A DNA stretch of 64,000 bases from NCBI RefSeq assembly GCF_035917275.1, contig NZ_CP108509.1, positions 1,488,001 to 1,552,000 of the forward strand. Direction: 5' to 3'. This document shows, piece by piece, positions 1 through 28,689 of the stretch. Position 1 is the first letter of the stretch. The number at the start of each line of letters is the position of its first letter. The position numbers and the translations under genes are program-made. The DNA comes from Streptomyces sp. NBC_01237. Its GTDB lineage: Bacteria; Actinomycetota; Actinomycetes; Streptomycetales; Streptomycetaceae. The notes below the pieces were generated by a model. That model was not told the origin of the DNA, ran no database searches, and saw only the letters and a program-made list of their open reading frames with translations.

Positions 1-381
1 CGACCGGGCCCGCGCGCCGGTCAGCGCCGCGCCCAGCAGCCGTGCGCCCAGACCACTCCCCTGCCGGTGCCGGGCGACACAGAAGTTGTAGAGGACGCCG
101 GAGGCGCTGCCCTCGCGCACCGCGTCGGCGTGCACGCCCAACGCCAGGCAGCCCTCAAGGGTTCCGTCGGACGCCTCGGCCACGAAGAAGTCGGCGGCAC
201 GGGCCGCGTACACCGCCGAGGGGCGCTCGCGCAGTGCGCCCGAGCGGACGAACGGCTCGGAGAGTGCGGCGAGTGCGGCGGCGTCCCCGGGCTCCGCGGT
301 GCGCACCAGGAGCGGGAGCGGACCGGGCGGGTGCGGCGGGCGCGGCAGCGGCGTGACGGGGCGTGGCGTGGCCGTGGTCAA
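1..381 (-). CDS. GNAT-family N-acetyltransferase (partial, C-terminus beyond left edge)
   Basis: Reading the minus strand from a TTG start at 381 gives 127 residues with no stop before the window edge. A GAGGAAGG ribosome-binding site sits six bases before the TTG. The protein begins with a Pro-rich tail, then VRTAEPGDAAALAALSEPFV, typical of the first strand and helix of GNAT enzymes. Near the cut end it has VLYNFCVARHRQGSGLGARL, in which RQGSGLGARL is the acetyl-CoA pyrophosphate loop (Q/RxxGxG/A). Its own iron box lies 75 bp upstream, so it belongs to the siderophore regulon. By context I infer that it acetylates an amine of the siderophore or a precursor; foroxymithine carries one acetyl group. 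A generic amino-acid acetyltransferase (ArgA-like) cannot be excluded. Confidence 0.8.
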   Translation of the reverse strand, partial: MTTATPRPVTPLPRPPHPPGPLPLLVRTAEPGDAAALAALSEPFVRSGALRERPSAVYAARAADFFVAEASDGTLEGCLALGVHADAVREGSASGVLYNFCVARHRQGSGLGARLLGAALTGARARS

Positions 382-455
382 GGCGTTCCTTCCTCGGTTC
401 CACCGTGCGCGAAGGGCAGTTGGAGCGCCTCGGGGCTCCGACGCGACAGCAAGAC

Positions 456-474
456 TTAGGTTAGCCTCACCTAA
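456..474. promoter_or_regulatory. Iron box (DmdR/IdeR-type operator) for the acetyltransferase gene
   Basis: The 19-bp imperfect palindrome TTAGGTTAGCCTCACCTAA differs by one base from the Streptomyces DmdR1 consensus as I remember it. It lies 75 bp before the acetyltransferase start and just after the end of the preceding phosphopantetheinyl transferase gene, so the acetyltransferase seems to have its own iron-repressed promoter. Confidence 0.85.
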
Positions 475-559
475 CCGCATCGACCAAGTCCGGAGAGCCG
501 CCGCCCGGTTGAGGCGGGCGGCTGCCGCCTGCGGCCCGGCCCGGCGAACCCCGCTGCGC

Positions 560-1261
560 TCAGCTGCGGTTCGTACCGGAGTCCGCCGTACGAATCGCGC
601 AGGCTGCCGCGTAGCCCGGTTGGGCGGGCACATCGGTGAGCGTCCAGCCGGGGACGGCCGCCGGGGCGGACCCCGCTCCCACATGTGTGACGGAGAGGTC
701 CTCGCCCAGGCCGATGCCGACGCCCTTGAGATAGGCCTCCTTGCGGGCCCAGCAGCGAACCACCGCGGCCGGCCGGGCCGCGTACGGCAGGGCCGCCAGC
801 TCCGCGCGCTCGGCCGGATGGAACAGTGCTCCCATCTCCGCCGCCGTCCCGGCATCGGGCATCGCCTCGACGTCGACGCCGACCGGAGTGTCCGCGAAGG
901 CCATCAGGACGGCGTCGCGTGAGTGGGAGAAGTGCGGTGCGCCTGCCGCCACCGCCGGGCGGCCGTGCGGTTCACCGCAGCCGGGACAGGGCTCGCGCGT
1001 CAGCCGTACGTCCGCCGGATCCCGGTCGAGGTAGGCGCCGAGCAGTTGTCGCAGCGCCACATGCGCGACCCGGTAGCGGTCGCGGTCGGTGTCGCGCAGG
1101 AAGGCCCGGCAGCGCGCCAGCTCCGCACCGTCCAGCACCGCTTGCCGTGCGACGGCCCGGTCCCGGTACTCGCCCACGCGCAGGGACCACAGCATCGGGC
1201 CCGCGCCGGCCACCCACGGCTCCGGCAACGGGTCCCTGCCCAGGACCGCCGGGGGCGTCAT
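560..1261 (-). CDS. Sfp/EntD-type 4'-phosphopantetheinyl transferase
   Basis: This 233-residue protein should transfer phosphopantetheine from CoA to the serine of NRPS carrier domains, activating the large synthetase nearby. It has the family motifs: FSHSRD near 111-116, GVDVE near 128-132 (first Mg-binding acid) and WARKEAYLK near 171-179 (the W-x-x-KEA-x-x-K signature). Length fits the Sfp class. The chosen ATG at 1261 overlaps the TGA of the upstream 75-aa gene by one base (TGATG), so translation is probably coupled. It is the last gene of an operon beginning with the ferric-siderophore permeases. A longer reading frame extends upstream but would run through the small gene. Confidence 0.93.
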   Translation of the reverse strand: MTPPAVLGRDPLPEPWVAGAGPMLWSLRVGEYRDRAVARQAVLDGAELARCRAFLRDTDRDRYRVAHVALRQLLGAYLDRDPADVRLTREPCPGCGEPHGRPAVAAGAPHFSHSRDAVLMAFADTPVGVDVEAMPDAGTAAEMGALFHPAERAELAALPYAARPAAVVRCWARKEAYLKGVGIGLGEDLSVTHVGAGSAPAAVPGWTLTDVPAQPGYAAACAIRTADSGTNRS

Positions 1262-1488
1262 CAGGCGCACGGGCGTCCCGGGTAGTCGTCGCTCTCCGGC
1301 ACCCCGGCACGGCGCATCCGGTGCAGGACGTCCGGCAGGAACTCGTCCTCCACGGGGGCCGGAACGTTGAGTTCCCGGTCGAAGGCCATGGTGTCCCCGT
1401 CCGCGTTCCAGATGACCCACCGGGGTGTGGACGTCCGCGGCTGCCACAGGGACGCCCAGGATTCGAGGCCGTCCGCACACTCGCTCAC
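1261..1488 (-). CDS. Small protein of unknown function, co-translated in the siderophore operon
   Basis: A 75-residue protein whose ATG overlaps the amidohydrolase stop (ATGA) and whose TGA overlaps the phosphopantetheinyl transferase start, so it is locked between two coupled genes. I do not recognise the family. The centre reads RWVIWNADGDTMAFDREL, and the rest is acidic with a Cys near each end; there is no signal peptide or membrane segment. It is MbtH-sized but lacks MbtH invariants such as the SxWP and HWTDMRP motifs, and the true MbtH gene is elsewhere. Double translational coupling and conserved-looking aromatic content argue that it is real. A role in handling or modifying the siderophore is only a guess. 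Confidence 0.7.
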   Translation of the reverse strand: MSECADGLESWASLWQPRTSTPRWVIWNADGDTMAFDRELNVPAPVEDEFLPDVLHRMRRAGVPESDDYPGRPCA

Positions 1489-3062
1489 GACCGCGTCACC
1501 TGCTTCGTGTCGCGGCCGTCCACGAAGGTCGACAGGACCTCGATGTCCCCGATCCGGGAGGTGTCGACATGCGTCGGATCATCGCCCAGCACCACGAGAT
1601 CGGCCCGCTTCCCCGGTGTGAGGCTGCCTGCGCTGCCGTCCCAGCGGCAGGCGTACGCACCGGCGACCGTATAGGCGCGCAGCGCCTCGTCGACGGTGAC
1701 GCTCTCGTCCGGGCCTATCAGCCGGCCCGAGACGGAGGCGCGCTCGACCATGAACTGGACCGCGCGCAGCGGCGATCCGTCCGTGACGGGCCGGTCGGAG
1801 CTGCCCACGACCGTGACACCGTGGTCGAGGAACCCACGGCCCCGGTACATCCACGGGGCCCGCAGCTCCCCCATGACCGTCGCGTAGTCGTCGCCGAAGT
1901 AGCGCAGGAAGTTCGGCTGGATCACCGCGCTGACGCCGAGCCGCGCGAAGCGTGGGAGCTGGTCGGGGCGGATCAGCCCGGCGTGCTCGATGCGGTGCCG
2001 CGCGTCCGGGCGCGGCCGTAGCTTCTGCGCCCGCTCCAGAGCGTCCAGCGCGAGGTCCGCGGCGCGGTCGCCGATGGCGTGGACGGCGAGCTGCCACCCG
2101 GCGAGGTGCCCGTCCACGATGAGGTCCGCGAGGCGGTCGGGGTCGTCCTGGAGCTGTCCGGCCCGGGTCGTGCCCTCGTACGGGGTGGTGAGCGCCGCCG
2201 TACGCGCCATCATGCCGCCGTCGGTGTAGATCTTGAGCGCGCCCAGCGAGAGCCAGTCGTCGCCGAAGCCGGTGCGCATTCCGAGGTCGAGGGCGCGCGG
2301 GATGCCGTCGTCCCGATGCGTGGTGAGCGGCCGCAGGGTGTCACCGGCCGCCATGAGCTGGACCCGGAGAGGCAACCGGCCCTGGTCCCTGAGCAGTTGG
2401 TAGGCGCCGAGCTCGACCGGGCTGTGGCCCAGCAGTCCGCCGCCGATGCCCGCCTCGGCGCAGGCGGTCACGCCTTCGGCGAGGCAGGCGCGGCCCGCGT
2501 GCTCGATCGCGTCGGCGAGTTCGGCCTGGGAGTACGCCGGACGCAGCCGCCGGGCGGCGGTCATGGCGCCCTCCACCAGGAACCCGTCCTGGCGCGGCAC
2601 GTCGGCCGGCAACAGGCCGAGCACAGCGCTGTTGACCACGCAGGCGTGTCCGGAGTCGTGCATCAGGAACACCCGGCGCCCGTCACTGACCCGGTCCAGC
2701 TCGGCGGCGGTCAGATGCCGTCCCAGGGCCCGTTGGTCGTAGCCCGCCAGGTCCACCCAGGCGCCGGGGGCCTTCCGGGAGACGGCGTCCGCCACCGCCG
2801 CGAGCACGTCCTCGATCCGCTCGCAGGGGGCGACGCTCGGGGTGCTCGCCTTCAGACCGGTCCAGGCGAGGTGGACATGGCTGTCGATGAACCCGGGGAG
2901 CACGGTGGCGCCTTGGAGGTCGACGACCTCACGCGCGGGAAGCGCGGTCACCTCCTCGTCCAGGCCGACGATCCGGCCCTGCCACATGCCCAGGTCGTGG
3001 GCGACGGGGCGGTCGGGGTCCATGGTGAGGATGTTGGCGTTCGTCAGCCGTGTGCAGAGCAT
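1485..3062 (-). CDS. Amidohydrolase family 3 (YtcJ-like) metal-dependent hydrolase
   Basis: A 525-residue TIM-barrel hydrolase with full YtcJ/amidohydrolase-3 features: VLPGFIDSHVHL near 55-65 with the HxH metal pair (H62, H64), LKIYTDGGMMA in mid-protein, AVHAIGDRA and HRIEHAG (the two later metal histidines), and VVGSSDRPV with the catalytic Asp, then a C-terminal GKRADLVVL strand. There is no signal peptide, so it acts in the cytoplasm. It starts 18 bp after the importer ATPase gene and overlaps the next gene by four bases. Coelichelin clusters carry an esterase (CchJ) in a similar setting; by analogy this enzyme may cleave an amide of the imported ferric siderophore or trim a precursor. 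Substrate is unknown. Confidence 0.85.
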   Translation of the reverse strand: MLCTRLTNANILTMDPDRPVAHDLGMWQGRIVGLDEEVTALPAREVVDLQGATVLPGFIDSHVHLAWTGLKASTPSVAPCERIEDVLAAVADAVSRKAPGAWVDLAGYDQRALGRHLTAAELDRVSDGRRVFLMHDSGHACVVNSAVLGLLPADVPRQDGFLVEGAMTAARRLRPAYSQAELADAIEHAGRACLAEGVTACAEAGIGGGLLGHSPVELGAYQLLRDQGRLPLRVQLMAAGDTLRPLTTHRDDGIPRALDLGMRTGFGDDWLSLGALKIYTDGGMMARTAALTTPYEGTTRAGQLQDDPDRLADLIVDGHLAGWQLAVHAIGDRAADLALDALERAQKLRPRPDARHRIEHAGLIRPDQLPRFARLGVSAVIQPNFLRYFGDDYATVMGELRAPWMYRGRGFLDHGVTVVGSSDRPVTDGSPLRAVQFMVERASVSGRLIGPDESVTVDEALRAYTVAGAYACRWDGSAGSLTPGKRADLVVLGDDPTHVDTSRIGDIEVLSTFVDGRDTKQVTRS

Positions 3063-3080: not shown

Positions 3081-4091
3081 CTAGCTGGTCTCGGCCATCA
3101 CGGTGTCGGTGATGGAGGTCCTGCCCGTACGGTCCTCGGGCGCGCCGTGCTCGGCCTTACTGTCCTGGGGCACGTACCGTCGCGGCGCCGCGGGCACCAT
3201 CAGCGGGGAGCCGGTCTCGGGATCGTCGATGATCCGGCACGGCAGCCCGAAGACGTCCTCGACCAGCTCGGCCGTCATGACGGTGGCCGGGTCGCCCTCG
3301 GCCGCCACCGTCCCGCCGGGGCGCATCACGATGAGGTGGGTGGCGTAGCGGCACGCCTGGTTGAGGTCGTGGAGGACCGCGACGACGGTGTGCCCCTTGC
3401 GGGCGTGCAGGTCGGCACAGAGGTCGAGCACCTCGACCTGGTGGGCGATGTCGAGGAACGTGGTGGGTTCGTCCAGGAGCAGGATGGAGGTCTGCTGCGC
3501 GAGCACCATCGAGAGCCAGACGCGCTGGCGTTGCCCACCGGAGAGATCGTCGACGGAGCGGTCGGCCAGGTCCAGCACGCCGGTCTGCTCCATCGCCCCG
3601 ACGACGGCCGCCTCGTCCTCCGCGGACCACTGCTTCAGCATCCCCTGGTGCGGGTAGCGGCCCCGGGCCACGAGGTCACCGACCGTGATGCCGCCGGGCG
3701 CTGTCGAGGACTGCGGCAGCAGCCCCAGCCGACGGGCGACCTCGCGCGACCGGTAGGAGCCGATGGGCGCTCCGTCCAGCTGGACCTGCCCGGCCCGGGG
3801 TTTGAGCATCCGGGCGAGTGCCTTGAGGAGGGTGGACTTCCCGCAGGCGTTCGGTCCGATGATCACGGTGAAGGAGTTGTCGGGAATGTCCACGCCGAGG
3901 TGGGTGGCCACGGTCCGCTGGTCGTAGGACAGTGTCAGGTCCTCGGCACGCAGGCGGGGACCGGGCTGTTTCGTGCCTGACGCGTCGGCCGTCGTGGCCG
4001 CTGCGACGGACGTGCCCGATGCGGTTCTCGTGGCCGCGGCGGCCGATACGTGTGAGGTAGTCGTTGCGTGTGATGCGGTCTTCTCGGTCAT
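3081..4091 (-). CDS. Ferric-siderophore ABC importer, ATP-binding protein (FepC/FecE family)
   Basis: A 336-residue ATPase that should power import of the ferric siderophore with the two permeases encoded just upstream. It has Walker A GPNACGKST, a Q-loop LGLLPQSS, signature LSGGQRQRVWL, Walker B ILLLDEPTTFLD and switch histidine VLHDLNQ, all canonical. A low-complexity Ala/Thr/Ser-rich N-terminal tail of about 50 residues precedes the nucleotide-binding domain, and a roughly 30-residue tail follows it. The ATG at 4091 overlaps the permease stop (ATGA); the frame is open further upstream, but only through the permease gene. Confidence 0.95.
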   Translation of the reverse strand: MTEKTASHATTTSHVSAAAATRTASGTSVAAATTADASGTKQPGPRLRAEDLTLSYDQRTVATHLGVDIPDNSFTVIIGPNACGKSTLLKALARMLKPRAGQVQLDGAPIGSYRSREVARRLGLLPQSSTAPGGITVGDLVARGRYPHQGMLKQWSAEDEAAVVGAMEQTGVLDLADRSVDDLSGGQRQRVWLSMVLAQQTSILLLDEPTTFLDIAHQVEVLDLCADLHARKGHTVVAVLHDLNQACRYATHLIVMRPGGTVAAEGDPATVMTAELVEDVFGLPCRIIDDPETGSPLMVPAAPRRYVPQDSKAEHGAPEDRTGRTSITDTVMAETS

Positions 4092-5206
4092 GCGCGGCTC
4101 TTTCGCGACTCGTTGATCAGCAGCCAGATGAGGTACAGCCCGCCGAGGGTCCCGGTCGCCGTGCCCACCGGAAGGAGTGCCGGGGCGAAGACACGCTGGG
4201 CCACCAGGTCGCTCGCGGCGAGCAGCAGCGCGCCCATGAGCGCGGCGGACATCAGTCCCGGACCGGAGGACCGGGTGAGCCGGCGGGCCAGCTGGGGGGC
4301 CGCCAGCGCCACGAACCAGATGGGGCCGGTCACGGCCGTGGCGAACGCGGCGAGCGCGACACTGATGAGGAGCAGCACCGCGCGTGTACGCGCCACGTTG
4401 ACCCCGAGCGCCGTCGCGGTGACATCCCCCATCTCCACCATGGAGAGCCGGCGGGAGAAGAAGAGGGCGAGCGGGAGCAGTACGGCGACGGCGGCCAGGA
4501 TGGCGTTCGCGTGCGGCCAGCCCCGGTTGCTCAGGCTTCCGATCAGCCACGCCTGCGCCTCCAGGGCCTCCTGCCAGGTGGCCCGGGTGATCAGGTACGA
4601 GTTGACGGAGAGCAGCAGGGCGCTCACGCCGATGCCCACGACGACCAGCCGGAAGCCCTGCAACCCCCTGCCCAGCATGAGGAGATAGATGGCGGCGGCG
4701 GTGGCGAGGCCGCCGATCAGCGCGCCCACCGCGATCTGCGTCATGCTGCCGTGCAGCACGATGATGACGACGAGCGCCCCGACCGCCGAGCCGTTGGTGA
4801 AGCCGATGATGTCGGGGCTGCCGAGGGAGTTGCCGGTCAGGCTCTGCAGGATGGCGCCGCTGACCGCCAGGGCGGCGCCCACGCACAGCGCGGTCAGCAG
4901 ACGGGGCATACGCAGGGTGTTGACGATGAAGTCGGCGCCGCCCGATCCGTTGCCCACCACGGCCCGGAGGACTTCACCGACGGACAGTTCGAAGTCGCCG
5001 GTGGTGAGCGTGACGAGCATGACCACGATGAGCGCGACGAGCACCACACCCGTCACGGCCAGGGTGCGGCCCTGGAGCCGTACGGACATTCCCCCGGCCC
5101 GGGTGCGCAGGACCATCCCGCTGACGACCCGCGGCCGTTCGGTGAGTCTCCCGGCCCTCTCCGGGGACTTCCCGGCGGCGGAGATCTTCTCCCGTACAGC
5201 GCTCAC
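4088..5206 (-). CDS. Ferric-siderophore ABC importer, FecCD-family permease 2
   Basis: A 372-residue integral membrane protein of the FecCD (BtuC-like) family with about nine to ten transmembrane helices. Family landmarks are LRMPRLLTALCVGAALAVSG, GNSLGSPDIIG and the ATPase-coupling stretch LGVNVARTRA, then the GPIWFVALAAPQLARRL loop. The GTG at 5206 overlaps the TGA of the first permease (GTGA) and was preferred to in-frame codons inside that gene. It should form the membrane channel with permease 1, ATPase and the lipoprotein encoded 20 kb away in the same cluster. Confidence 0.94.
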   Translation of the reverse strand: MSAVREKISAAGKSPERAGRLTERPRVVSGMVLRTRAGGMSVRLQGRTLAVTGVVLVALIVVMLVTLTTGDFELSVGEVLRAVVGNGSGGADFIVNTLRMPRLLTALCVGAALAVSGAILQSLTGNSLGSPDIIGFTNGSAVGALVVIIVLHGSMTQIAVGALIGGLATAAAIYLLMLGRGLQGFRLVVVGIGVSALLLSVNSYLITRATWQEALEAQAWLIGSLSNRGWPHANAILAAVAVLLPLALFFSRRLSMVEMGDVTATALGVNVARTRAVLLLISVALAAFATAVTGPIWFVALAAPQLARRLTRSSGPGLMSAALMGALLLAASDLVAQRVFAPALLPVGTATGTLGGLYLIWLLINESRKSRA

Positions 5207-6270
5207 AGCATGACCAGCTTTCGACGGCGGCACAGCGCGATGAACAGCGGCGCACCGAGAAACGCGGTGATGATGCCGACCTGGACCTCGCCCGGCGAGC
5301 CCAGCACCCGCCCGAGGACATCGGCTCCGATGAGCAGGATCGGCGCGAGCAGCATCGAGTAGGCCAGCACCCACCGTTGGTCGGGGCCGACGACGAACCG
5401 GGCGACGTGCGGCACGGCGAGCCCGACGAAGCCGATCGGCCCCGCCGCGGCGGTGGCGGCGCCGCACAGCAGCATGACCGCGACCGCGCCCAGCGCCCGG
5501 GTCCGGCCGACGTTCAACCCCAGGGCACGGCTCACCTCGTCGCCGAGCCCCAGGGCGTTGAGCGACGGGGCGAGGCCGAGGGCGATCAGGACGCCGACGG
5601 CGACGAACGGCAGGATGACCTGGATGACGTCGTAGTACCGGCCCGCGAGGGAGCCCACCGTCCAGAACCGGAACTGGTCGAATGCGCGCGGGTTGAGCAG
5701 CAGCACGGCCGAGTTGAAGGCGTAGAGCACCGCGGTCAACGCCGCTCCGGCGACGACCAGCCGGTCGGGCGTGGCCACCTTGCGGCCCGAGGCGCCCAGC
5801 AGATACACCACCACCGACGCCACGGCCGCTCCGATGAAGGCGAACCACACATAGCCGAGGACCGAGCCCATGCCGAGGAAGGCGATGGCCACGACCACTC
5901 CGGCGGAGGCGCCCAGGCTGATGCCGAGCAGTCCCGGGTCGGCGAGCGGGTTGCGGGTCAGGGCCTGCATCAGCGCCCCGGACAGACCGAGTGCCATTCC
6001 GACCAGAAGGCCCAGAAGGGTCCTGGGGATGCGGTAGTCATGGATGATGATCGAGGTCTCGGAGCCGTCGGGATTCCACAGCACGTTCCAGGTGGAGGTG
6101 AACGGGATGCCCCGCGTCCCCACCCACACGCTGAGAAGTCCGACCAGGACCAGGGCACCGAGCGCCGCGAGCAGGCCCACGCCCCGCAGCGCCGTCACTC
6201 CCCGGCCGGGCCGGGCGGCGGCCGGAGCGGCGGCCTGGTTCTCGGGCACCGCGCGGGCTTCGACCGGCAA
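5203..6270 (-). CDS. Ferric-siderophore ABC importer, FecCD-family permease 1
   Basis: A FecCD-type permease of about 355 residues with multiple membrane helices. Diagnostic segments are YRIPRTLLGLLVGMALGLSG, TRNPLADPGLLGIS, LGLNVGRTRA and GPIGFVGLAVPHVAR. It heads an operon of six genes (two permeases, ATPase, amidohydrolase, small protein, phosphopantetheinyl transferase) and is preceded by an iron box at 6338-6356. The start is uncertain: I chose a TTG at 6270, six bases after a GGGGGAG ribosome-binding site. The frame stays open to TTG 6333 and GTG 6327, but those nearly touch the iron box and lack a ribosome-binding site. Confidence 0.88.
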   Translation of the reverse strand: MPVEARAVPENQAAAPAAARPGRGVTALRGVGLLAALGALVLVGLLSVWVGTRGIPFTSTWNVLWNPDGSETSIIIHDYRIPRTLLGLLVGMALGLSGALMQALTRNPLADPGLLGISLGASAGVVVAIAFLGMGSVLGYVWFAFIGAAVASVVVYLLGASGRKVATPDRLVVAGAALTAVLYAFNSAVLLLNPRAFDQFRFWTVGSLAGRYYDVIQVILPFVAVGVLIALGLAPSLNALGLGDEVSRALGLNVGRTRALGAVAVMLLCGAATAAAGPIGFVGLAVPHVARFVVGPDQRWVLAYSMLLAPILLIGADVLGRVLGSPGEVQVGIITAFLGAPLFIALCRRRKLVML

Positions 6271-6337
6271 CGACAACTCCCCCTGACGGCAGTCAGTTCC
6301 ACCGCAAGCAACGTCATGCAGGGACACAGACAAAGAC

Positions 6338-6356
6338 TTAGGTGAGGCTAACCGAA
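6338..6356. promoter_or_regulatory. Iron box for the importer operon (leftward)
   Basis: TTAGGTGAGGCTAACCGAA is a good match to the 19-bp DmdR/IdeR iron box. It lies 67 bp before the proposed start of permease 1 in the divergent importer/exporter intergenic region. Confidence 0.85.
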
Positions 6357-6498: not shown

Positions 6499-6517
6499 TT
6501 AGAGTAGCCTTACCTAA
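6499..6517. promoter_or_regulatory. Iron box for the exporter operon (rightward)
   Basis: TTAGAGTAGCCTTACCTAA, a 19-bp iron box with a weaker left half, sits 28 bp before the ATG of the first exporter gene, so the divergent import and export operons each have their own operator. Confidence 0.8.
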
Positions 6518-10302: not shown

Positions 10303-10512
10303 TCAGCCCTGCTGGGCCACCAGGCTCGCGGGACGCATGTCGGTCCAGTGGGACTCCACATGGGCGAGGCACGCCTCGCGGGTGTCCGGGCCGAGGACGG
10401 TCCGCCACCCGGCCGGCACCTCGGCGAAGGACGGCCACAGGGAGTGCTGGTTCTCATCGTTGACCAGGACCAGGAAGGTGCCCTGCGGGTCCTCGAACGG
10501 GTTGGTCGTCAT
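10303..10512 (-). CDS. MbtH-family NRPS accessory protein
   Basis: A 69-residue protein matching MbtH throughout: [24 protein letters not shown] near the start, then [10 protein letters not shown] and the hallmark [14 protein letters not shown]. MbtH proteins bind adenylation domains and are often needed for their folding or activity. The ATG overlaps the TGA of the NRPS gene (ATGA), so the two are made together; this is the last gene of the leftward biosynthetic operon. Confidence 0.97.
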
Positions 10513-19500: not shown

Positions 19501-22500
19501 CAGTCCGGGAGGCCCGTGCCGGTCTCCATGACCTGGGTGAACGCGGCGAGCATCGACGGAACGAAGTGGGTGGTGGTGATCCGCCGGGCGTGGATCAGCT
19601 CGGCCAGGTAGGCCGGGTCGCGGTGGCCGTCGGGGCGGGCGAGGACGACGGCCGCGCCCTCCACCAGGGGCCAGAAGAACTCCCACACGGACACGTCGAA
19701 ACTGGCGGGCGTCTTCTGGAGCACCCGGTCCTCGGGGGTCAGCCCGTACGCGCCCTGCATCCAGGCGAGCCGGTTGACGATGGCCCGGTGGGTGACGGCG
19801 ACGCCCTTGGGACGCCCGGTGGAGCCGGAGGTGTAGATGAGGTAGGCGGGGTGGTCGGGGCCGGCCGGGCGGGCGGGCGTGCCGGGTGTGCCGGGGACGT
19901 CTTCGGTCCGGTCGTCCCCGCCGACGAGGAGGTGGCCGAGGCCGGGCACGACGGGCAGCCGCCCGGCCGCTTCGGCGGTGGTCACCACGGTGCGCGCGCC
20001 GGAGTCGCCGAGCATGAACGCGACCCGGTCGGCGGGGTAGTCGAGGTCGACCGGCAGATAGGCGGCGCCCGCCTTGAGGACGGCGAGGAGCGCGATCATC
20101 AGCTCGGCGGAGCGGGGTACCGCGACCGCGACGTACGTCTCCGGGCCGGCGCCGCGTGAGCGCAGCCGCCGGGCCAGCGCCTCGGCACGCCGGTCCAGCT
20201 CCGCGTACGTCAGGGTGGTGTCCTCGAAGACGACGGCGGTGGCGTCGGGTGTGCGGGCCGCCGTCGCCGCGAACAGCGAGGCGAGAGTGGCCTCGGGAAC
20301 GGGCCGCCCGGTGGCGTTCAGCGCGGCGAGGTGCTCGTGCTCCCGGTCGGAGAGCACGCCGGTCCGGGCGACGGTGCGACCGGGGTCGGACACGAACGCG
20401 CGCAGCAGCGCCGTGAACCTGTTGGCGAGCACGGCCACGGTCACCTGGTCGAGGCGGGCCGCGTCGTGCTTGAACCGCAGCAGGAGCCCGTTCCCGCCCG
20501 GCTCCACGACGAGCGCGAGGGGGTAGTGCACGGAGTCGAACACCTCGGCGCCGGTGATGCGCAGCTCGCCGGGCGCCTGCGCGGCGGAGAGGTCGCCGGT
20601 CGGATAGTTCTCGAACACCACGAGTGTGTCGAAGAGTTCTCCGCCGCCCGCGATCCGCTGGATGTCGGCGAGCGCCAGGTGCTGGTGGTCCAGGAGCGCC
20701 GCGTGCTCGTCCTGGACCCGTCGCAGCAGCTCGGCGAGCGATTCGCCGGCGCGCGGCGCGACCCGCGCGGGGACGGTGTTGATGAACAGGCCCACGGCGG
20801 TGTCCAGGTCCGTGACCTCGGTCGTCCGGCCGGACACGGTCGTGCCGAAGACGACGTCCTGACTGCCGGTGAGCGAGGTGAGGAGCAGGCCCCACACACC
20901 GTGGACGACGGTGCTCAGGGTGAGGCCGTGGGTCCGTGCGCGGGCGATGAGGTCGGCGGTGAACCGTTCGGGCAGCCGAGTGTCGACGTGCTCCGTCCTG
21001 GGTGCCGTCCGCCCCCGATCCGTCCCGGCGGCGAGTGCGGGCAGCCGGGTCGGCCCTTCGAGCCCGGACAGCGCCTGCCGCCACGCGTCGCGGGCGGCGT
21101 CCCGGTCCCGGCCCGCCAGCCACGACAGGTACGGGCGCGGGGCCACCGGCTCCGCAAGCTCCTCGCCCCGGTGGGCGGCGGTCAGTTCGCGCAGCAGGAC
21201 CGCGACCGACCAGCCGTCGGCGACGATGTGGTGCAGGGTGAGCAGGAGCCGGTGGCGGTGGCCGTCCCGGATGAGGGTGGCGCGCAGCAGCGGCGGCCGG
21301 GCCAGGTCGAAACGCTCGGCCCGGTCGGCACTCAGCAGGTCGTCGAGGCCGGTGTCGGCGGTGTCGGCCTCCCGCCACGGAAGGATGACCTCGGCGGCGA
21401 GGCGCTGGACCACCTCGCCGCCGGGAAGCTGGCGGAACGAGGCACGCAGCAGGGGGTGCCGGTCCAGGAGCAGTTGCAGGGTGCTTCGCAGCCGGGCCGG
21501 GTCGACGGGGCCGTCCAGGTCGAGGAGTTCCTGGACCATGTAGAGGTCCGCTTCCCGTGCGTCGAACGCGGCGTGGAAGAAGAAGCCCTCCTGGAGCGGG
21601 GAGACGGGCAACGCGTCCTCGTCCAGCACGGCCGGGACGGCCGGGGCCGGGCGGGCCGTGATCCCCTCCGTCGGCCCGGTCTCCGACCCGGTCCCGGCCG
21701 CGGACCGGGCGAGGGCCGCCACCGTCCGGAGCCGGAACACCTCGCGCGGCCTGATCGTGAGCCCGGCCTCACGGGCCCGGTTCACCAGCTGGATGGCGAC
21801 GATGCTGTCCCCGCCCAGTTCGAAGAAGCTGTCGTGGACGCCGACCGACGGCTGCCCGAGGACATCGGCGAAGAGGGCGGCGAGCACGGTCTCGGCCGGG
21901 GTGGTGGGGGCGTCGGCGCCGCTCATGGCCGTCCAGCGGGGCTCGGGCAGGGCGCGCCGGTCGAGCTTGCCGTTGGGGGTCAGCGGGAGCGAGCCGTCGA
22001 GGACGACGACGGCGGACGGCACCATGTGGTCCGGCAGGGTGTCGGCGATCCGGGCCCGTGCGGCGGTCACGGCGGTGCCGGATTCCGTGGCGGTGTCGGC
22101 GGCCAGGTAGGCGACGAGGCGTTTGACGCCCCGGTGGTCCTCACGGACGAGGACGGCGGCCTGGGCGATTCCCGGGCAGCCCATGAACGCGCTCTCGATC
22201 TCGCCCGGCTCGATGCGATGACCCCGGATCTTGACCTGGCCGTCCGCACGGCCCAGGAACTCCAGGTTGCCGTCGGTACCCCAGCGGACCCGGTCTCCGG
22301 TGCGGTACATCCTCGTGCCCGGCCCGCCGTACGGGTCGGCGACGAACCGCTCCGACGTCAGCCCCGGACGGCCCAGATAGCCGCGGGCCAGACCGCGGCC
22401 GGCGACGTACAGCTCGCCCTCGACGCCCACCGGTACGGGGCGGAGCGCGGCGTCGAGGACGTAGGTGCGGGTGTTCGGGTCGGGGCGGCCGATGGGCGTG

Positions 22501-24806
22501 GGGCCCGGCCGGTCCGCACGGGCGCTCCAGAGGGTGGAGTTGACGCTCGCCTCGGTGAGGCCGTAGGCGACGACGACCCGGAGCCGCCCGGACCAGCGGG
22601 CGATGAGCTCGCCCGGCACGGCTTCGGTGCCGACGACGAGGACGGCGCCTTCGGGCAGTTCGCACTCCGGCGGCAGCGCCGAGACGATCGAGGGCGGCAG
22701 GATCATGTGCGTGGCGTCGTGCCGCGCTATGTACTCGGTCAGGGCGGGTCCCGCGACGCGGCGTTCGGTGGGGACGAGGATGATCCGGCCTCCGACGCAC
22801 AGAGCCATGACCAGGTCCCAGACCGTCACGTCGAAACCGACGGAGGCGAACTGCACGACGCGGCTGTCGGCGGTCACGCCGATCCGTTCGGTGGCGGTGG
22901 CGATGAGACTGCCGATGCCGTCGTGGGGGACGACGACGCCCTTGGGGCGGCCCGTGGAGCCGGAGGTGTAGATGACGTACGCGGCCTGGTCCAGTGCGAC
23001 CGGCAGACCGGGATCGGAGCCGTCGAGGGCGGCGCGGGTGTCCGCGGTGGCCGGGTCGTCCAGCAGTACGTGCGCCACGCCGTCCTGTGCCGGGGGGAGT
23101 TCGTCCGCGAGTTCCCGCACGGTGATCACCGTGCGGGCCCCGGCGTCGGACAGCATGTAGGCGATGCGGTCCTGGGGGTGGTCGGCGTCCAGCGGCAGAT
23201 AGGCGGCACCGGTCTTCATCACCGCGAGCAGGGACACGACGAGGTCCGGGGTGCGCGGCAGGGCCACGGCGACGACGTCCTCGGCGCCGACGCCGCGGGC
23301 CAGGAGGAGGCGGGCGAGCCGGTTGGCCTCGGTGTCGAGAGCGGCGTACGTCAGCTCGTCGTCCTCGCACACGAGCGCGACGGCGTCGGGCGTGCGGCGC
23401 ACCTGCGCCTCGAAGGCCGCGGGCCAGGACTGTTCGGACACCGGGTGCGGTGCCGTCCCGAACTCGCCGAGGAGGCGGCCGCGTTCGTCCGCGGAGGTGA
23501 GTTCGATGTGGCCGACGGGGCGGTCGAGGTCCTCGGTGAGGGCCTTCAGCAGGGTGCGGAAGCGGCGCTCGTGGTCGCGGAGCGTCTCCTCGTCGCAGAT
23601 GTCCGCGTCCGCGTCGAGGTGGACGCGCAGCCCGGTGCCGTCCCGGGTCCCGGCGAACGCGAAGGCGAGGTCGCTGACCGGGCCGAGCCACTCCGGGAGG
23701 AGCTCGGCCGTGCCGTCCGGGAAGCCCAGTTCCTCGGGCCGGGGAAGGATGTTGACGGTGGGCCCGACGAGCGCCGGTACGCCGTCGACGAGGCCGAAGT
23801 CCCTGGCCAGGTCCTCGGCACGGTAGCGCCCGTGCGCCACCGCTCCGGCGACCGCGTCGCGTACCCCGGCCACCAGGTCCGTCCCGGTCGTCCCGGGGCT
23901 GACCCGCACGCGCAGCGGGACGATGTTGGAGACCATGCCGGGGGTGCCGGCCGACACCCGGTCCTGCCGGGCCGCGATCGGCAGGCCGAGGACGAGGTCC
24001 TGCTCGCCGCCGGCCCGGTGGAGGTAGGCGGCCACGGCGGCGACCAGGACACGGGACGGCCGGACACCGGAGCGCTCGGCGGCCGCGTACAGCCGCTCCG
24101 TCTCCTGTGCGGAGAGTTCGGCGGTGCGCCGCAGGCGCCGCGCCATGGGGGACGGGCCGCGCTCGACCAGACGTGCGGGCTCGGCGCGTCCGGACATCCG
24201 CTCGTGCCACCAGGCGCGGTCGGCCCCGTACTGCTCGGATGCCCGGTAGGCCAGATCGGCGTCCACGAGCCGGGCGAGCGGCCGGTCCTCGCGGGCCGGG
24301 GCCTTCTCGCCCAGGGTGTAGAGCTCGCCGGCCCGACGGGTGATGAGTGCGACGCCCATGCCGTCGAGAACGATGTGGTGGTAGCGCTGGGACCATCGGA
24401 CCCGGTCGTCCGCGAGCCGCAGCAGGACCTGGGAGAAGAGCGGGCCGTGGGTGAGGTCGACGGGCCGGTCCCGGTCGGTGGCCGTCCAGGTGGCGGCGGC
24501 CTCCTCGGGGTCCGGTGCGCCGCGCAGGTCGATGACGGGCACCTCGAAGGAGACGGGGCGCGGAGTCTGGCGCGCTTCTCCCTGTCCGGGCACCACCTCG
24601 ACGTGCAGGCACTCGGCCTCCTCGACCGCCTGGCGGACCGCGCCCGCGAGGTGGTCGAGGTCGATGTCGCCGAGCAGGTCCAGGGTGAAGACGATGTTGT
24701 AGGCGGAGCTGTCCGGCTCGATCTGCTGGGCAAGCCAGACGCCGGCCTGCCCGCCGGTCAGCGGGAGCCCGGAAGCGGTTGTCCGGTCCGACTCGACGTC
24801 AAACAT
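10509..24806 (-). CDS. Four-module siderophore NRPS, C-A-T x4 plus terminal C domain
   Basis: A 4,765-residue synthetase. Approximate residues: C1 10-450, A1 460-950, T1 970-1040; C2 1060-1480, A2 1500-2005, T2 2035-2105; Ala/Pro-rich linker; C3 2185-2615, A3 2635-3165, T3 3190-3255; C4 3270-3700, A4 3735-4230, T4 4250-4310; terminal C 4340-4755. Ten-residue codes I extracted: A1 DVWIVGAVNK, A2 DVWHFSLVDK (serine), A3 DMENLGLINK (N5-hydroxyornithine, the code I recall for coelichelin module 3), A4 DVFILGAVNK. There is no epimerase and no thioesterase. C1, C2 and C4 keep HHxxxD; C3 reads HHLILWDG (shifted) and the last C reads HYLAVDE. T1/T2 have GGDS, T3/T4 GGHS. ATG 24806 was chosen because C1 begins right after it; ATG 24833 is also possible. 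Predicted product: a foroxymithine-type tetrapeptide. Confidence 0.95.
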
Positions 24807-24919
24807 CGTACGAAGGGGCCTTTCCCTGGTCATGCCGGTGATGGGTGTGCCGTCCCGGTGAACGGGGCGGGCCGCCGCTGACAGACGGCTTCGGCGCTCG
24901 CCCCGTTCTCGTCCGTCAT

Positions 24920-24948
24920 CGACGGCGTGCCGGGCCGGCACGCCGTCG
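24920..24948. terminator. Hairpin between lipoprotein and NRPS genes
   Basis: A perfect 12-bp stem (24920-24931 with 24937-24948) around a five-base loop lies in the 181-bp gap between two same-strand genes. No iron box is visible in that gap, so this may attenuate read-through from the lipoprotein gene into the NRPS rather than mark a true operon end. Confidence 0.6.
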
Positions 24949-24987
24949 AACCGTCCGCCTTCCCGGTCCCGCGTCAGTGGTGGGGCG

Positions 24988-26025
24988 TTACTTGATGGCC
25001 GCCAGCAGCGGCTCGATCTCGTCGATCGCGTAGGGGATGGAGAGGGCCGTGTTGAAGGAGAACGCGGCACCGACGTCCGGGTCCTGGTAGGGCACGAACA
25101 GGTCGCGCTTGTCCTGATGGACCTTCAGGTTCTTGTAGAGCGGTTCCGCCTTGATCCGGTTGTCGGCGTCGGTGCTGGAGGTCACCCAGACCAGCCGGTC
25201 GACGTCCAGCACATTCAGCTTCTCGGCACTGAGCTCGGCGGCGTTCCAGCCCGGCTTGGCCAGTGTGTCGATCTGGGGCTTCAGCTTGAAGCCCAGTTCG
25301 GAGAAGAAGATCGACTTGGGGTCGGTCCTGGTGAACGCCGAGTACTTGCCCGCCTCGAAGCTGTCGGCGACGGCGAGCGTCTTCGTGGCGAACTCGGGGT
25401 GCTTGTCGCGGACGGCCTTGAAGCGGGCGTCGATGCCCGCGATCAGCTTCTCGGTCTCCGCGTCCTTGCCGAGCGACTTGCCGATCTGCCGGGTCATGAC
25501 CTGCCAGGAGGCGCCGTAGTCGGGAAGGCCCTTGGGCTGGGCGACGACCTTGGTGAACTTGGAGAGCGTGTCGTACTGCTCCTTCTTCATCCCCGAGTAC
25601 TGGGCGATGACCAGGTCCGGCTTCAGCGAGGCGATCTTCTCGATGTTGTACTCGTCGCGCTCACCCACGATCTCCGGCTTCGTGGAGCCCCACTTGTCCT
25701 TGGTCCACGGCCACTTGCCGTACGGCTGCTCCTTGAACCAGTCCACCGATCCGACGGGCTTGATACCGAGCGCCAGCACCGCGTCCTGGTCCGAGAGGCC
25801 CAGGGTGACGACCCTCTTCGGCTCCGCGTCGACCGTCGTGCTGCCGTACTTGTGCTCGACCGTCACCGGGAAGGCGCCGGACTTCGCCCCGGCCGAGGGC
25901 TTGGACTCGGCCTTGTCGGCGCCGCCCCCACAGGCGGAGAGAGCGAGCGCGGCGACGGCCACGACGGCGACACGGGGAAGGTCTCTGACGAGCCGCGTCA
26001 GGGCGGGGCGTGTACCAATGGACAC
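24988..26025 (-). CDS. Ferric-siderophore-binding lipoprotein (FepB/FhuD-type, TroA fold)
   Basis: A 345-residue periplasmic-type binding protein. It begins with a basic N-terminus, a hydrophobic run and the lipobox LSAC, then a low-complexity linker and the binding domain. Family markers include [32 protein letters not shown], and the helical-backbone features of iron-siderophore binding proteins. It should deliver the ferric siderophore to the FecCD importer encoded at 3.1-6.3 kb. The GTG at 26025 follows an AAAGGA ribosome-binding site by six bases; an upstream in-frame TTG at 26040 overlaps that site and was rejected. It lies between the hydroxylase and NRPS genes on the same strand. Confidence 0.93.
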
Positions 26026-26141
26026 GGATGTTCCTTTCAAGGGGTTTCACTGTGCACACCAGGTCCGTCCACGAAGGCGCCGCCAACCGGCCGCGCGTGT
26101 GGGGGACTTGGCTGAAGATGTGTGGGTCGGGGCGAGCGACC

Positions 26142-27494
26142 CTAGCGGACCGATCCGATGCCGTCGGCGACCGGCCGCGGCCCGCCGGGGGCGGACTCCG
26201 CTCCCCGGTCGAGAATCGAGTCCAGGATCTCGCCGACCCTGATCGCGGTGTTGGAGAGCAGGGACGACGTGATGCCGTGGGTGTGCTCGGTGCCGCCCTG
26301 GAGGTAGATGCCGCAGCGCAGTCCGTCGTCCGTCGCGATCCGGTAGTCGCGCTCGACCTGGACGCGGCCCCGGTCGTCGCGGTGACAGCGTTCCGCCACG
26401 TCACCGAGGAGGGCGAGCGGCTCGGCCGGGGTGTAACCGGTGGCGAGGACCACCACATCGGCCTCCAGCGTGCTCTCCTCGCCGTTGACGAGGGACTTGA
26501 CGGTGGCGCGCACCGTGTCCGGGGTCTCCTTGACGCCGGTCAGCCGGGAGATGTTGAGGAAGCGCAGCCGCTCGGTGCCGAGCACCTTCTCCTGGTACGC
26601 CTGGCGGTACAGGTCGTCGATCAGGTCGATGTCCACCACGGAGTAGTTGGTGTTGCCGTGGTAGTCCATCAGCTTGCGCTTGATGTCGTCGGGGGCGGCG
26701 TAGTACTCGTCGACCGCCTGCGGGTCGAAGATGCGGTTGGCGAAGCTGCTGTCGTCGGCAGGGCTGTAGCCGTAGCGGGAGAAGACGGCGCAGACCTCCG
26801 CACGGGGGAAGCGGCGGTGCAGGTACGCGACGTTCTCGGCGGCGCTCTGACCGGCGCCGACGACGATGAAGCGGGTGGGGTCGGTGCCCGCCAGGCCGTC
26901 CACCTTGGCCAGCAGGTCGGAGTTGTGCCAGACGCGGTCCGTCCGCTCCACGCCCTCGGGCATCAGGGGCCGCAGCCCCGTGCCGATGACGAGGTTGCGG
27001 GCACGGTGGACCACCGTCTCCGAGCCCGAACGGGCCGTCACATCGAGGTACTCCACCACTCCATCGCGTACGACGGGCTCGACGGAGATGACCTCGTGGC
27101 CGTAGGAGACCATGTCGTCGACCTTCGCCGCGGCCCACTCGAAGTAGTCGTGGAACTCCACGCGCAGCGGGAAGAGGTTCTTGTGGTTGACGAAGTCGAT
27201 CAGGCGGCCCTTGCTCTGCAGGTAGCGCAGGAAGGTGTACTCGCTGGACGGGTTACGAAGCGTCACCAGGTCCTTGAGGAAGGACACCTGCATCGTCGCG
27301 TCGTCGATCAGCATGCCACGGTGCCAGCCGAAGTTCGGCTGCCGCTCGAAGAAGTGAGCGGTGACCGTCTCCTGCCTGCCGACACGCGCGTTGTGCTCGC
27401 TCAGCGCGATCGCCATGGCCACATTGGACGGCCCGAAGCCGATACCTATGAGGTCATGGATCAAAGGTGCGTCGCCAGGAAGAACCTGTGACAT
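26142..27494 (-). CDS. L-ornithine N5-monooxygenase (hydroxylase)
   Basis: A 450-residue flavin monooxygenase that uses FAD, NADPH and O2 to make N5-hydroxy-L-ornithine, the hydroxamate precursor. It has the FAD motif GIGFGPSNVAMAIA near 17-30, the substrate/flavin segment MQVSFLKDLVTLRNPSS, the NADPH motif VVGAGQSAAENV and the C-terminal VVLATGYTP. The run FLKDLVT..R.P is characteristic of SidA/PvdA/CchB-like ornithine enzymes. Start ATG 27494 has GGGAG upstream; the frame extends further but through the iron box. It heads the leftward biosynthetic operon (hydroxylase, lipoprotein, NRPS, MbtH). Confidence 0.95.
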   Translation of the reverse strand: MSQVLPGDAPLIHDLIGIGFGPSNVAMAIALSEHNARVGRQETVTAHFFERQPNFGWHRGMLIDDATMQVSFLKDLVTLRNPSSEYTFLRYLQSKGRLIDFVNHKNLFPLRVEFHDYFEWAAAKVDDMVSYGHEVISVEPVVRDGVVEYLDVTARSGSETVVHRARNLVIGTGLRPLMPEGVERTDRVWHNSDLLAKVDGLAGTDPTRFIVVGAGQSAAENVAYLHRRFPRAEVCAVFSRYGYSPADDSSFANRIFDPQAVDEYYAAPDDIKRKLMDYHGNTNYSVVDIDLIDDLYRQAYQEKVLGTERLRFLNISRLTGVKETPDTVRATVKSLVNGEESTLEADVVVLATGYTPAEPLALLGDVAERCHRDDRGRVQVERDYRIATDDGLRCGIYLQGGTEHTHGITSSLLSNTAIRVGEILDSILDRGAESAPGGPRPVADGIGSVR

Positions 27495-27579
27495 GTCACT
27501 CCCATCGTGCGGGTCGCCTGCCAGGCGCGGATGAAAAGAACGAGAGGCCGAGCCCGCCGTTGCCACCGGCCAGCCAAAC

Positions 27580-27598
27580 TTAGGTAAAGCTAACCTGA
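27580..27598. promoter_or_regulatory. Iron box for the leftward biosynthetic operon
   Basis: TTAGGTAAAGCTAACCTGA matches the iron box; it lies 85 bp before the ornithine monooxygenase start. I see no further box before the lipoprotein or NRPS genes, so iron control of those probably comes from here. Confidence 0.85.
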
Positions 27599-27684
27599 GC
27601 TGAATCAAACTGTCGACAGGGCAAAACGGACGAGCGGCAGAAGTGGGGCGGCGAACAGGCCCAAAAACCGGGCGCGTTGCGCTA

Positions 27685-27703
27685 TTAGGTAAGGCTTGCT
27701 TTA
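27685..27703. promoter_or_regulatory. Iron box for the formyltransferase gene
   Basis: TTAGGTAAGGCTTGCTTTA resembles the iron box with a variant right half, 38 bp before the formyltransferase ATG in the divergent intergenic region. Confidence 0.75.
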
Positions 27704-27741
27704 CTTGCCCCCGGTCAGTCGCTCTTCCGAGGAGGAACTCC

Positions 27742-28689
27742 ATGCGGGTCGTCATGTTCGGTTACCAGACCTGGGGGCACCGCACCCTTCAAGCACTCCT
27801 GGAATCCGAGCACGACGTCGTCCTGGTCGTGACGCACCCCAAGAGCGAGCACGCCTACGAGAAGATCTGGAGCGACTCGGTCGCCGACCTGGCCGAGGAG
27901 CACGGCGTTCCGGTGGTCATCCGCAACCGGCCCGACGACGAGGAACTGCTCCAGCGGCTCAAGGAAGCCGACCCGGACATCATCGTGGCCAACAACTGGC
28001 GGACCTGGATCCCGCCGCGCGTCTACACGCTGCCCCGTCACGGCACCCTGAACATCCACGACTCGCTGCTGCCGAAGTACGCCGGTTTCTCGCCGCTCAT
28101 CTGGGCCCTGATCAACGGTGAACGCGAAGTCGGCGTCACGGCCCACATGATGGACGAGGTTCTCGACGCCGGTGACATCGTGGACCAGCGCGCGGTGACG
28201 GTGGGTCCCGCCGATACGGTCACCGACCTCTTCCACAAGACCGTCGACCTCATCGGCCCGGTCACGATCGGCGCACTGAAGCTGATCGCCTCGGGGCAGA
28301 CCGAGTTCACCAAGCAGGACCGTTCACAGGCCAGCTTCTTCCACAAGCGGTCCGAGGAAGACATCCGGATCAACTGGGACTGGCCCGCCGATGTCCTGGA
28401 GCGTCTGGTCCGCGCCCAGTCCGCCCCGTACCCCAGCGCCTTCACCTTCCACAGGGGCAGGCGTCTGGAGGTCCTGGCCGCGGTCGTGTCCGAGGGCCGC
28501 TACGGCGGTACGCCGGGGCGCGTCTTCTACCGCGAGGGCGACGGGGTGGTGATCGTCGCGGGCGCCGACGCGCGGACCGGCCGCAACCACGGCCTCGCCA
28601 TCACCCGCGTGCGTACCGAGGACGGCCGCGAGCTGCCGGCGGCCGACTACTTCACGTCCATGGGGGGCTACCTCACCAACCGCGCCTGA
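27742..28689 (+). CDS. N5-hydroxyornithine formyltransferase (CchA-like, formyl-THF dependent)
   Basis: A 315-residue member of the methionyl-tRNA formyltransferase fold. The active-site segment reads GTLNIHDSLLPKYAGFSPL, with the Asn-x-His of formyltransferases, and Asp in VLDAGDIV; MRVVMFGYQTWGHRTLQALL begins the Rossmann part. It should transfer a formyl group from 10-formyl-THF to the N5-hydroxylamine, as CchA does in coelichelin assembly. The ATG at 27742 follows AGGAGGA, and upstream in-frame codons overlap the iron box. It is the only rightward gene from this promoter and ends before a hairpin shared with the DoxX gene. Confidence 0.93.
   Translation: MRVVMFGYQTWGHRTLQALLESEHDVVLVVTHPKSEHAYEKIWSDSVADLAEEHGVPVVIRNRPDDEELLQRLKEADPDIIVANNWRTWIPPRVYTLPRHGTLNIHDSLLPKYAGFSPLIWALINGEREVGVTAHMMDEVLDAGDIVDQRAVTVGPADTVTDLFHKTVDLIGPVTIGALKLIASGQTEFTKQDRSQASFFHKRSEEDIRINWDWPADVLERLVRAQSAPYPSAFTFHRGRRLEVLAAVVSEGRYGGTPGRVFYREGDGVVIVAGADARTGRNHGLAITRVRTEDGRELPAADYFTSMGGYLTNRA

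What the first reader, a model, noticed from the sequence alone, without database searches (positions are those of the whole stretch)
1..28689. Complete-looking foroxymithine-type siderophore cluster
Seen: Ser and hydroxyornithine adenylation codes, four modules, no epimerase, terminal C domain, Orn hydroxylase, formyltransferase and an iron-regulated acetyltransferase. Known, from memory: foroxymithine contains three N-hydroxyornithines, one serine, two formyls, one acetyl and a diketopiperazine; those parts sum to C22H37N7O11 by my own arithmetic. Coelichelin lacks the acetyl group and the fourth residue. Inference: this cluster makes foroxymithine or a close relative.
Basis: partly seen in the sequence, partly recalled or inferred. 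Interest (0 to 1): 0.75.

Follow-up and report, generated by a model that had tools for sequence, protein, structure and literature searches.

The report
Foroxymithine-type cluster with ornithine supply
This stretch of Streptomyces DNA holds a gene cluster for an iron-scavenging peptide of the known foroxymithine type; the acetylating enzyme that seemed to finish the molecule more likely helps a neighbouring enzyme to make its ornithine building block.

Summary
The cluster is real. One 4853-codon frame holds an NRPS with five condensation and four adenylation domains (C-A-T x4, then C), codes DVWILVAVN / DVWHFSLVD (Ser) / DMENLGLIN (hydroxy-Orn) / DVFIVVAVN. Around it lie an ornithine hydroxylase, a formyltransferase, MbtH, siderophore transport genes and iron boxes. 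Foroxymithine and its S. venezuelae cluster are published, so this is a new member of a known kind.

Two corrections. (1) The cluster runs past the window's left edge: the acetyltransferase gene is cut there, and beyond it an iron-boxed operon carries a second acetylglutamate kinase (ArgB2). (2) The acetyltransferase is probably not what acetylates the siderophore. It is nearest to N-acetylglutamate synthases (below their curated cut-offs), co-occurs with ArgB2 (20 of 101 Streptomyces genomes; 5 expected) and sits beside coelichelin-like clusters, whose product has no acetyl (recalled). ArgB2 keeps the kinase residues (49 of 49) but has lost an arginine-site glutamate (47 of 49): an iron-controlled, probably arginine-deaf ornithine supply. 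The acetyl more likely comes from the starter-type C1 domain.

Open: the acyl group that C1 transfers, the substrates of A1 and A4, the stereochemistry, and the product itself.

The parts
1..381 (-). GNAT acetyltransferase, 5' part (whole gene L084:7851-8381, runs on to about window -149); N-acetylglutamate-synthase-like
456..474 (.). iron box, 18/19, upstream of the GNAT gene
   Evidence: a box upstream in 26 of 29 GNAT loci
560..1261 (-). 4'-phosphopantetheinyl transferase (open frame to 1480; start read by eye)
   Evidence: Pfam PF01648 E 2.1e-11; start
1485..3062 (-). Amidohydro_3 hydrolase, 525 aa, role unknown
   Evidence: solved relatives only uncharacterised hydrolases
3081..4100 (-). 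siderophore ABC importer ATPase (frame open to 4886; start inferred)
4088..5210 (-). second FecCD permease (frame open to 5848; start inferred)
   Evidence: Pfam PF01032 E 3.1e-75
5203..6333 (-). first FecCD permease
   Evidence: Pfam PF01032 E 1.5e-92
6338..6356 (.). iron box, 17/19, before the permease operon
6499..6517 (.). iron box, 16/19, before the exporter pair
6545..8296 (+). ABC exporter half
8293..10197 (+). ABC exporter half
10303..10512 (-). MbtH-like protein, 69 aa, start overlaps the NRPS stop
   Evidence: PF03621 100.8 bits over cut-off 27 at G000:C2:1498354-1498506
10509..25070 (-). four-module NRPS (likely start near 24836)
23481..24785 (-). C1, starter-type condensation domain
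21951..23450 (-). A1, code DVWILVAVN (acyl-hydroxy-Orn inferred)
18771..20300 (-). A2, code DVWHFSLVD (Ser)
15321..16850 (-). A3, code DMENLGLIN (hydroxy-Orn)
12111..13640 (-). A4, code DVFIVVAVN (acyl-hydroxy-Orn inferred)
10551..11915 (-). C5, terminal condensation domain, motif HYLAVDE
24988..26040 (-). ferri-siderophore binding protein
   Evidence: Pfam PF01497 E 7.3e-23
26142..27494 (-). L-ornithine N5-hydroxylase (frame open to 27755)
27580..27598 (.). iron box, 16/19, before the hydroxylase operon
27685..27703 (.). weak iron box, 14/19, before the formyltransferase
27742..28689 (+). N10-formyl-THF type formyltransferase (frame open from 27643; start read by eye)
   Evidence: Pfam PF00551 E 2.8e-32

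Best explanation
An iron-repressed locus makes, exports and re-imports a foroxymithine-type tris-hydroxamate. Shown by sequence: gene content, domain order, adenylation codes, iron boxes. Inferred: when iron is scarce a DmdR/IdeR-type repressor leaves the boxes; the monooxygenase makes N5-hydroxy-Orn and the formyltransferase turns part of it into N5-formyl-N5-hydroxy-Orn (fhOrn); the NRPS loads fhOrn, Ser, hOrn, fhOrn; C1 caps the alpha-amine of residue 1, most likely with acetyl from acetyl-CoA; C2 to C4 elongate; C5 releases the chain by closing the hOrn-fhOrn diketopiperazine. Ornithine is supplied by a dedicated iron-controlled pair: the GNAT as an N-acetylglutamate synthase and ArgB2 as an acetylglutamate kinase that has lost the arginine feedback site, so that flow to ornithine continues when arginine is plentiful.
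Against: No product known for this strain. The code taken from memory as fhOrn in coelichelin (DINYWGGIG, seen first in the S. fildesensis NRPS) differs from A1 and A4, so their substrate is inferred. The nearest solved hydroxylase is named a lysine N6-monooxygenase, MbtG (5.3e-191), ahead of the ornithine enzyme KtzI (1.3e-123). The GNAT stays far below the NCBIfam cut-offs for acetylglutamate synthase (44.2 of 344, 42.5 of 202.85, 27.6 of 180 bits), and all 23 members also match ArsN2 and PRK07757; the proposed catalytic base E353 is Val. In C1 the place of RzmA R148 (recalled as the acetyl gate) is V, I, L or A in 32 of 32. 6 of 40 genomes lack both GNAT and ArgB2, so the pair is not needed for the type.
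Confidence: 0.68

Rival explanations
1. One reading: the iron-regulated GNAT is the tailoring enzyme that puts the acetyl group on foroxymithine (on alpha-N, or on N5 of one hydroxy-Orn).
For: It is in the cluster under an 18/19 iron box; strong homologues in 29 of 40 genomes reached through formyltransferase loci. In seven of these (L114-L119, L121) the homologue is 45-53% identical and no ArgB2 lies within the 1.5 kb flank. The Salinispora genome has the GNAT and no ArgB2. General base of known acetylglutamate synthases not conserved.
Against: Nearest relatives are acetylglutamate synthases. It pairs with ArgB2 and stands beside coelichelin-like hOrn modules in 12 of 20 regions fetched, in genomes without a detected foroxymithine-type C1-A1; coelichelin has no acetyl (recalled). 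10 genomes with the A1 code lack a strong homologue. C1 offers another source of the acetyl.
Confidence: 0.18
2. The product is not foroxymithine but a near relative: another acyl group on residue 1, acetyl in place of formyl as in erythrochelin (recalled), or D residues.
For: A1 and A4 codes differ from the recalled fhOrn code; the C1 gate residue differs from RzmA; C2 and C3 group with C domains that follow E domains although this NRPS has none.
Against: A formyltransferase is in the cluster and, apart from the GNAT, no other acyltransferase gene was seen there. The clade of C2 and C3 also holds C domains that follow no E domain.
Confidence: 0.2
3. ArgB2 and the GNAT are neighbours without a part in the pathway.
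For: 6 of 40 genomes lack both; one fetched region (L209) shows ArgB2 with no other matched cluster gene in 20 kb.
Against: An 18/19 iron box before the ArgB2 operon; boxes at 15/19 or better in all 20 regions fetched, none in 59.7 kb of control loci; loss of the arginine site while the kinase residues stay; joint occurrence in 20 of 101 genomes.
Confidence: 0.12

Closest known systems
Foroxymithine cluster of Streptomyces venezuelae (RS35125-RS35150, 'tentatively matched' in PMC9769785, passages; BGC 29 crediting Kodani et al. 2015 in PMC8788739, passages; mutants used in PMC11005364, passages)
   Same: Predicted product type.
Erythrochelin synthetase EtcD (recalled; no sequence or primary paper seen)
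   Same: Recalled: residue order acyl-hOrn, Ser, hOrn, acyl-hOrn, alpha-N-acetyl and diketopiperazine release.
   Different: Recalled: N5-acetyl in place of N5-formyl, with D residues 1 and 2; here a formyltransferase is present and no E domain.
Coelichelin-like clusters of Streptomyces (L195-L206, L210)
   Same: Last module with the DMENLGLIN code, iron boxes; ArgB2 in all 13 and GNAT in 12 of the 13.
   Different: In these 13 genomes no foroxymithine-type C1-A1 was detected. The Thr-type code DFWNIGMVH was seen in 2 of the 13 pieces fetched; the others were not read far enough.
Variant foroxymithine-type synthetases (L006, L009, L026, L030, L037, L048, L062, L068, L078)
   Same: C1, A1 code (one change in L062); in the two read in full also A3 and A4 codes and flanking genes.
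   Different: A2 code DPLDFGVIQ or a near variant; an E domain after module 2 in the two read in full.
Ornithine operons inside peptide clusters, e.g. lunaemycin and stenothricin (PMC9866976, passages)
   Same: A cluster carrying its own acetylglutamate kinase for ornithine.
   Different: There a whole ornithine gene set in non-siderophore clusters; here only the first two steps, under iron boxes.

Membership tests
foroxymithine-type siderophore cluster | four-module NRPS with Ser in module 2, hydroxy-Orn in module 3 and a terminal C domain | tested here: met
   substrate readings recalled
foroxymithine-type siderophore cluster | modules 1 and 4 activate N5-formyl-N5-hydroxy-Orn | tested here: inconclusive
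   A1 and A4 codes agree in 7 of 9 positions with each other but not with the recalled coelichelin fhOrn code; formyltransferase present
foroxymithine-type siderophore cluster | ornithine hydroxylase and formyltransferase in the cluster | tested here: met
foroxymithine-type siderophore cluster | alpha-N-acetyl on residue 1 | tested here: inconclusive
   C1 is starter-type; the acyl group is not determined
foroxymithine-type siderophore cluster | product C22H37N7O11, iron dependent | not testable with these tools
   needs culture and LC-MS
coelichelin cluster | three-module NRPS without an N-terminal C domain | tested here: not met
   four modules, C1 present
scabichelin cluster | five-module synthetase (recalled) | not tested
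   no scabichelin sequence was compared
N-acetylglutamate synthase (the GNAT) | curated NCBIfam cut-off of an acetylglutamate synthase model | tested here: not met
   44.2 of 344, 42.5 of 202.85 and 27.6 of 180 bits; the first two models include a kinase domain that the GNAT lacks
N-acetylglutamate synthase (the GNAT) | nearest solved relatives are acetylglutamate synthases | tested here: met
N-acetylglutamate synthase (the GNAT) | glutamate-binding Arg pair; catalytic base | tested here: inconclusive
   R316 and R425 places Arg in all 23 members, E353 place Val (mapping mine)
acetylglutamate kinase (ArgB2) | TIGR00761 cut-off and catalytic residues (K8, R66, N158, D162, K217, recalled E. coli numbering) | tested here: met
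   234.9 of 151.3 bits; 49 of 49
arginine-sensitive acetylglutamate kinase (ArgB2) | arginine-site Glu and conserved N-terminal helix | tested here: not met
   Glu in 2 of 49 ArgB2 (not the window's) against 21 of 21 canonical; helix sequence not conserved in ArgB2

The most novel reading that the evidence does not exclude
Streptomyces hydroxamate siderophore clusters of different kinds (foroxymithine-type, coelichelin-like, others) share an exchangeable, iron-controlled ornithine cassette: a stand-alone acetylglutamate-synthase-like GNAT and an acetylglutamate kinase that lost its arginine feedback site. Iron starvation would thereby uncouple ornithine supply from arginine control.
Probability: 0.6. 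Interest if true: 0.6.

Novelty: new member of a known kind. Interest (0 to 1): 0.42.

Why it matters
The siderophore cluster is a further member of a known type. What it adds is a correction with a testable consequence: the gene that seemed to explain the acetyl group is better read as part of a precursor-supply switch, and the N-terminal condensation domain becomes the candidate for acetylation. If ArgB2 is deaf to arginine, nature has made the kind of kinase that engineers make by mutating the feedback site, and put it under iron control.

Tried and rejected
The GNAT as siderophore-tailoring enzyme was taken up first and then set below the supply reading. A 75-aa frame at window 1261-1488:- was labelled MbtH in my scripts; Pfam found nothing in it and the MbtH gene is at 10303-10512, so that label in those outputs is wrong. 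Comparison with S. venezuelae: part of a published primer (PMC7968930, passages) was searched in 392 Streptomyces genomes and matched 322, so nothing could be identified. Scabichelin and erythrochelin sequences were not compared. Salinichelin and lipoinitiation papers were not held or could not be opened. Structures of the GNAT and of ArgB2 were not predicted. One search scored 8 candidates per genome and one search scored 22, so absence there is not proof. In one search the labels follow the search that fetched a row, not its cluster: L207 and L214 ('other') are foroxymithine-linked and L126 ('fx') is not, so the count of label changes is too high; the mixing rests on L141 among coelichelin-like rows and on L197/L198/L202 among foroxymithine-linked rows. 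The fork that unites all 49 ArgB2 has weak support (89/41). In one search the tool warns of long branches, and the clade that holds C2, C3 and the five post-E domains also holds three C domains of other synthetases that follow no E domain. Literature on the cassette: acetylglutamate kinase, siderophore, ornithine, biosynthetic gene cluster; 6 papers listed; coelichelin, acetylglutamate; 1 paper listed; only PMC9866976 was opened, at passages. The library holds open-licence papers only. The 15 papers opened were seen at passages; structures of foroxymithine, erythrochelin and coelichelin are recalled.
Full report
OBSERVATION. The window is part of a 10.19 Mb genome (G000:C2:1488001-1552000) whose nearest named relative is Streptomyces sp. 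TSRI0281. On its left lies one NRPS frame of 4853 codons with five condensation, four adenylation and four carrier stretches, in the order C-A-T-C-A-T-C-A-T-C-A-T-C. The pocket codes are DVWILVAVN, DVWHFSLVD, DMENLGLIN and DVFIVVAVN. From memory the second is Ser and the third N5-hydroxy-Orn. There is no E domain. Hydroxylase, formyltransferase, binding protein, two FecCD permeases, ATPase, two exporter halves, PPTase, an Amidohydro_3 hydrolase and MbtH are present. The nearest solved hydroxylase is named a lysine N6-monooxygenase (MbtG), then the ornithine enzyme KtzI; ornithine is assumed from the A3 code and the Pfam family.

IRON CONTROL. Six sites of at least 14/19 to the iron-box consensus lie at -1851, 456, 6338, 6499, 27580 and 27685; thirty shuffles gave 0.07 on average, at most 1. 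Each sits just upstream of a cluster gene. The one at -1851 shows that the cluster continues beyond the window: it precedes an isochorismatase-like gene and a second argB (L084:6175-6876 and 6898-7842). The acetyltransferase gene is cut by the window edge.

RELATIVES. Of the 80 loci kept of 490 that encode a relative of the formyltransferase, 41 encode a C1-like domain; 35 carry a more distant NRPS without C1 (coelichelin-like by inference, codes not read); one (S. fildesensis, L053) has another hOrn synthetase; three show no NRPS in range. Of 41 loci read for codes, 37 have exactly DVWILVAVN in A1; A2 is the Ser code in 29 and DPLDFGVIQ or a near variant in 9. In the two of these nine read in full (Salinispora pacifica CNR114, S. 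xantholiticus) an E domain follows module 2. TSRI0281 has the same gene order from formyltransferase to the isochorismatase-like gene, proteins 94-99% identical.

THE ACETYLTRANSFERASE. Its best NCBIfam models are acetylglutamate synthases, matched by 23 of 23 members given, but far below the curated cut-offs; the same 23 also match ArsN2 and PRK07757. With a 23-sequence profile the four best solved structures are acetylglutamate synthases (7.3e-18 to 4e-8), the next 1.6e-4. Two arginines that bind glutamate's carboxyls in the gonococcal enzyme (PMC4490483, passages) align with invariant R53 and R167; the proposed base E353 aligns with Val (mapping mine). In an even draw of 101 Streptomyces genomes ArgB2 (over 410 bits) is in 24, the GNAT (E up to 1e-18) in 22, both in 20 (5.2 expected if independent), within 4 kb of each other in 17 (two of the 17 are the window's own species). 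The foroxymithine-type C1-A1 (E up to 1e-250) was found in 7 of the 101, 4 of them among the 20. Of 20 regions fetched, 12 show GNAT and ArgB2 beside a module with the DMENLGLIN code (two of these also show the Thr-type code), and all 20 have an iron box of 15/19 or better. Coelichelin carries no acetyl (recalled). Of the 40 genomes reached through formyltransferase loci, 28 have both genes, 1 GNAT only, 5 ArgB2 only, 6 neither (drafts, so some absences may be gaps); two of the 40 (L053, L058) are not of the plain foroxymithine type. An iron box lies upstream of the GNAT in 26 of 29 loci; 0 boxes in 59.7 kb of control loci.

ARGB2. On a tree of 71 kinases the 21 canonical ArgB are one side of a branch (100/98). 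The 49 ArgB2 unite with weak support (89/41), 48 of them with 100/99. Coelichelin-linked and foroxymithine-linked rows mix: L141 lies among the former, L197, L198 and L202 among the latter. All 49 keep the kinase residues. A Glu of the arginine site is present in 21 of 21 canonical and 2 of 49 ArgB2, and the N-terminal helix sequence of the canonical enzymes is not conserved in ArgB2. Changes at positions of this site are listed as weakening arginine inhibition in Corynebacterium (PMC10464499, passages; the mapping by spacing is mine). That removing the N-helix abolishes inhibition is recalled. The two exceptions, L208 and L211, lie beside other hydroxylase clusters and branch deepest.

MECHANISM. 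Proposed: hydroxylation and formylation of ornithine; assembly of acetyl-fhOrn-Ser-hOrn-fhOrn; release by C5 as a diketopiperazine; export; import by the FecCD system; ornithine supplied by GNAT and ArgB2 under iron control. Sequence shows the parts; every catalytic step is inferred.

UNRESOLVED. C2 and C3 lie in a clade (97/98) that holds all five C domains known here to follow E domains, though this NRPS has none; the clade also holds three C domains of other synthetases that follow no E domain. So L residues handled by D-type domains, or an epimerase acting in trans, stay open. C5 has HYLAVDE where HHxxxDG is usual, in 5 of 5 foroxymithine-type NRPSs read in full, one of them the window's own species. 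A1 and A4 do not share the recalled fhOrn code of coelichelin.

KNOWN OR NEW. Foroxymithine in S. venezuelae, a cluster tentatively matched to it, and mutants are in print (PMC9769785, PMC8788739, PMC11005364, passages). The cluster is a new member of a known kind. The iron-controlled ornithine cassette was not found described in the two searches made for it, which cover open-licence papers only; ornithine gene sets in non-siderophore peptide clusters are known (PMC9866976, passages).

Noticed in passing
L006, L009, L026, L030, L037, L048, L062, L068, L078: Variant synthetases with module-2 code DPLDFGVIQ or near it; an E domain follows module 2 in the two read in full. They should make a different siderophore; the Salinispora one may be the salinichelin cluster (recalled).
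   Followed up: partly
window NRPS C2 (20316-21620:-) and C3 (17001-18320:-): Both group with C domains that follow E domains although this NRPS has no E domain. C3 also has an extra residue in its motif ([10 protein letters not shown]), shared by relatives.
   Followed up: partly
window C5 (10551-11915:-): Terminal C domain has HYLAVDE in place of HHxxxDG, in 5 of 5 foroxymithine-type NRPSs read in full.
   Followed up: no
window:1485-3062:-: Amidohydro_3 hydrolase, 77-87% identical in 7 of the 12 coelichelin-like regions with GNAT and ArgB2. A deformylase for the formyl-hydroxamate is a guess.
   Followed up: partly
L084:6175-6876:+ (window about -1825 to -1124): Isochorismatase-family hydrolase between the iron box and ArgB2, kept in several relatives; role unknown.
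   Followed up: no
window:1261-1488:-: 75-aa frame without a Pfam match, 53-64% identical at the same place in several relatives.
   Followed up: no
L208, L211, L212: Other hydroxamate clusters (hydroxylase about 60% identical) whose ArgB2 keeps the arginine-site Glu: possible intermediates.
   Followed up: partly
G000:C2: The window lies in a 1.6 Mb contig next to an 8.2 Mb one: chromosome arm or a very large plasmid, not examined.
   Followed up: no
L002, L003 (own genome): Two further Lys/Orn N-hydroxylase homologues, 42% and 30% identical: other hydroxamates may be made.
   Followed up: no
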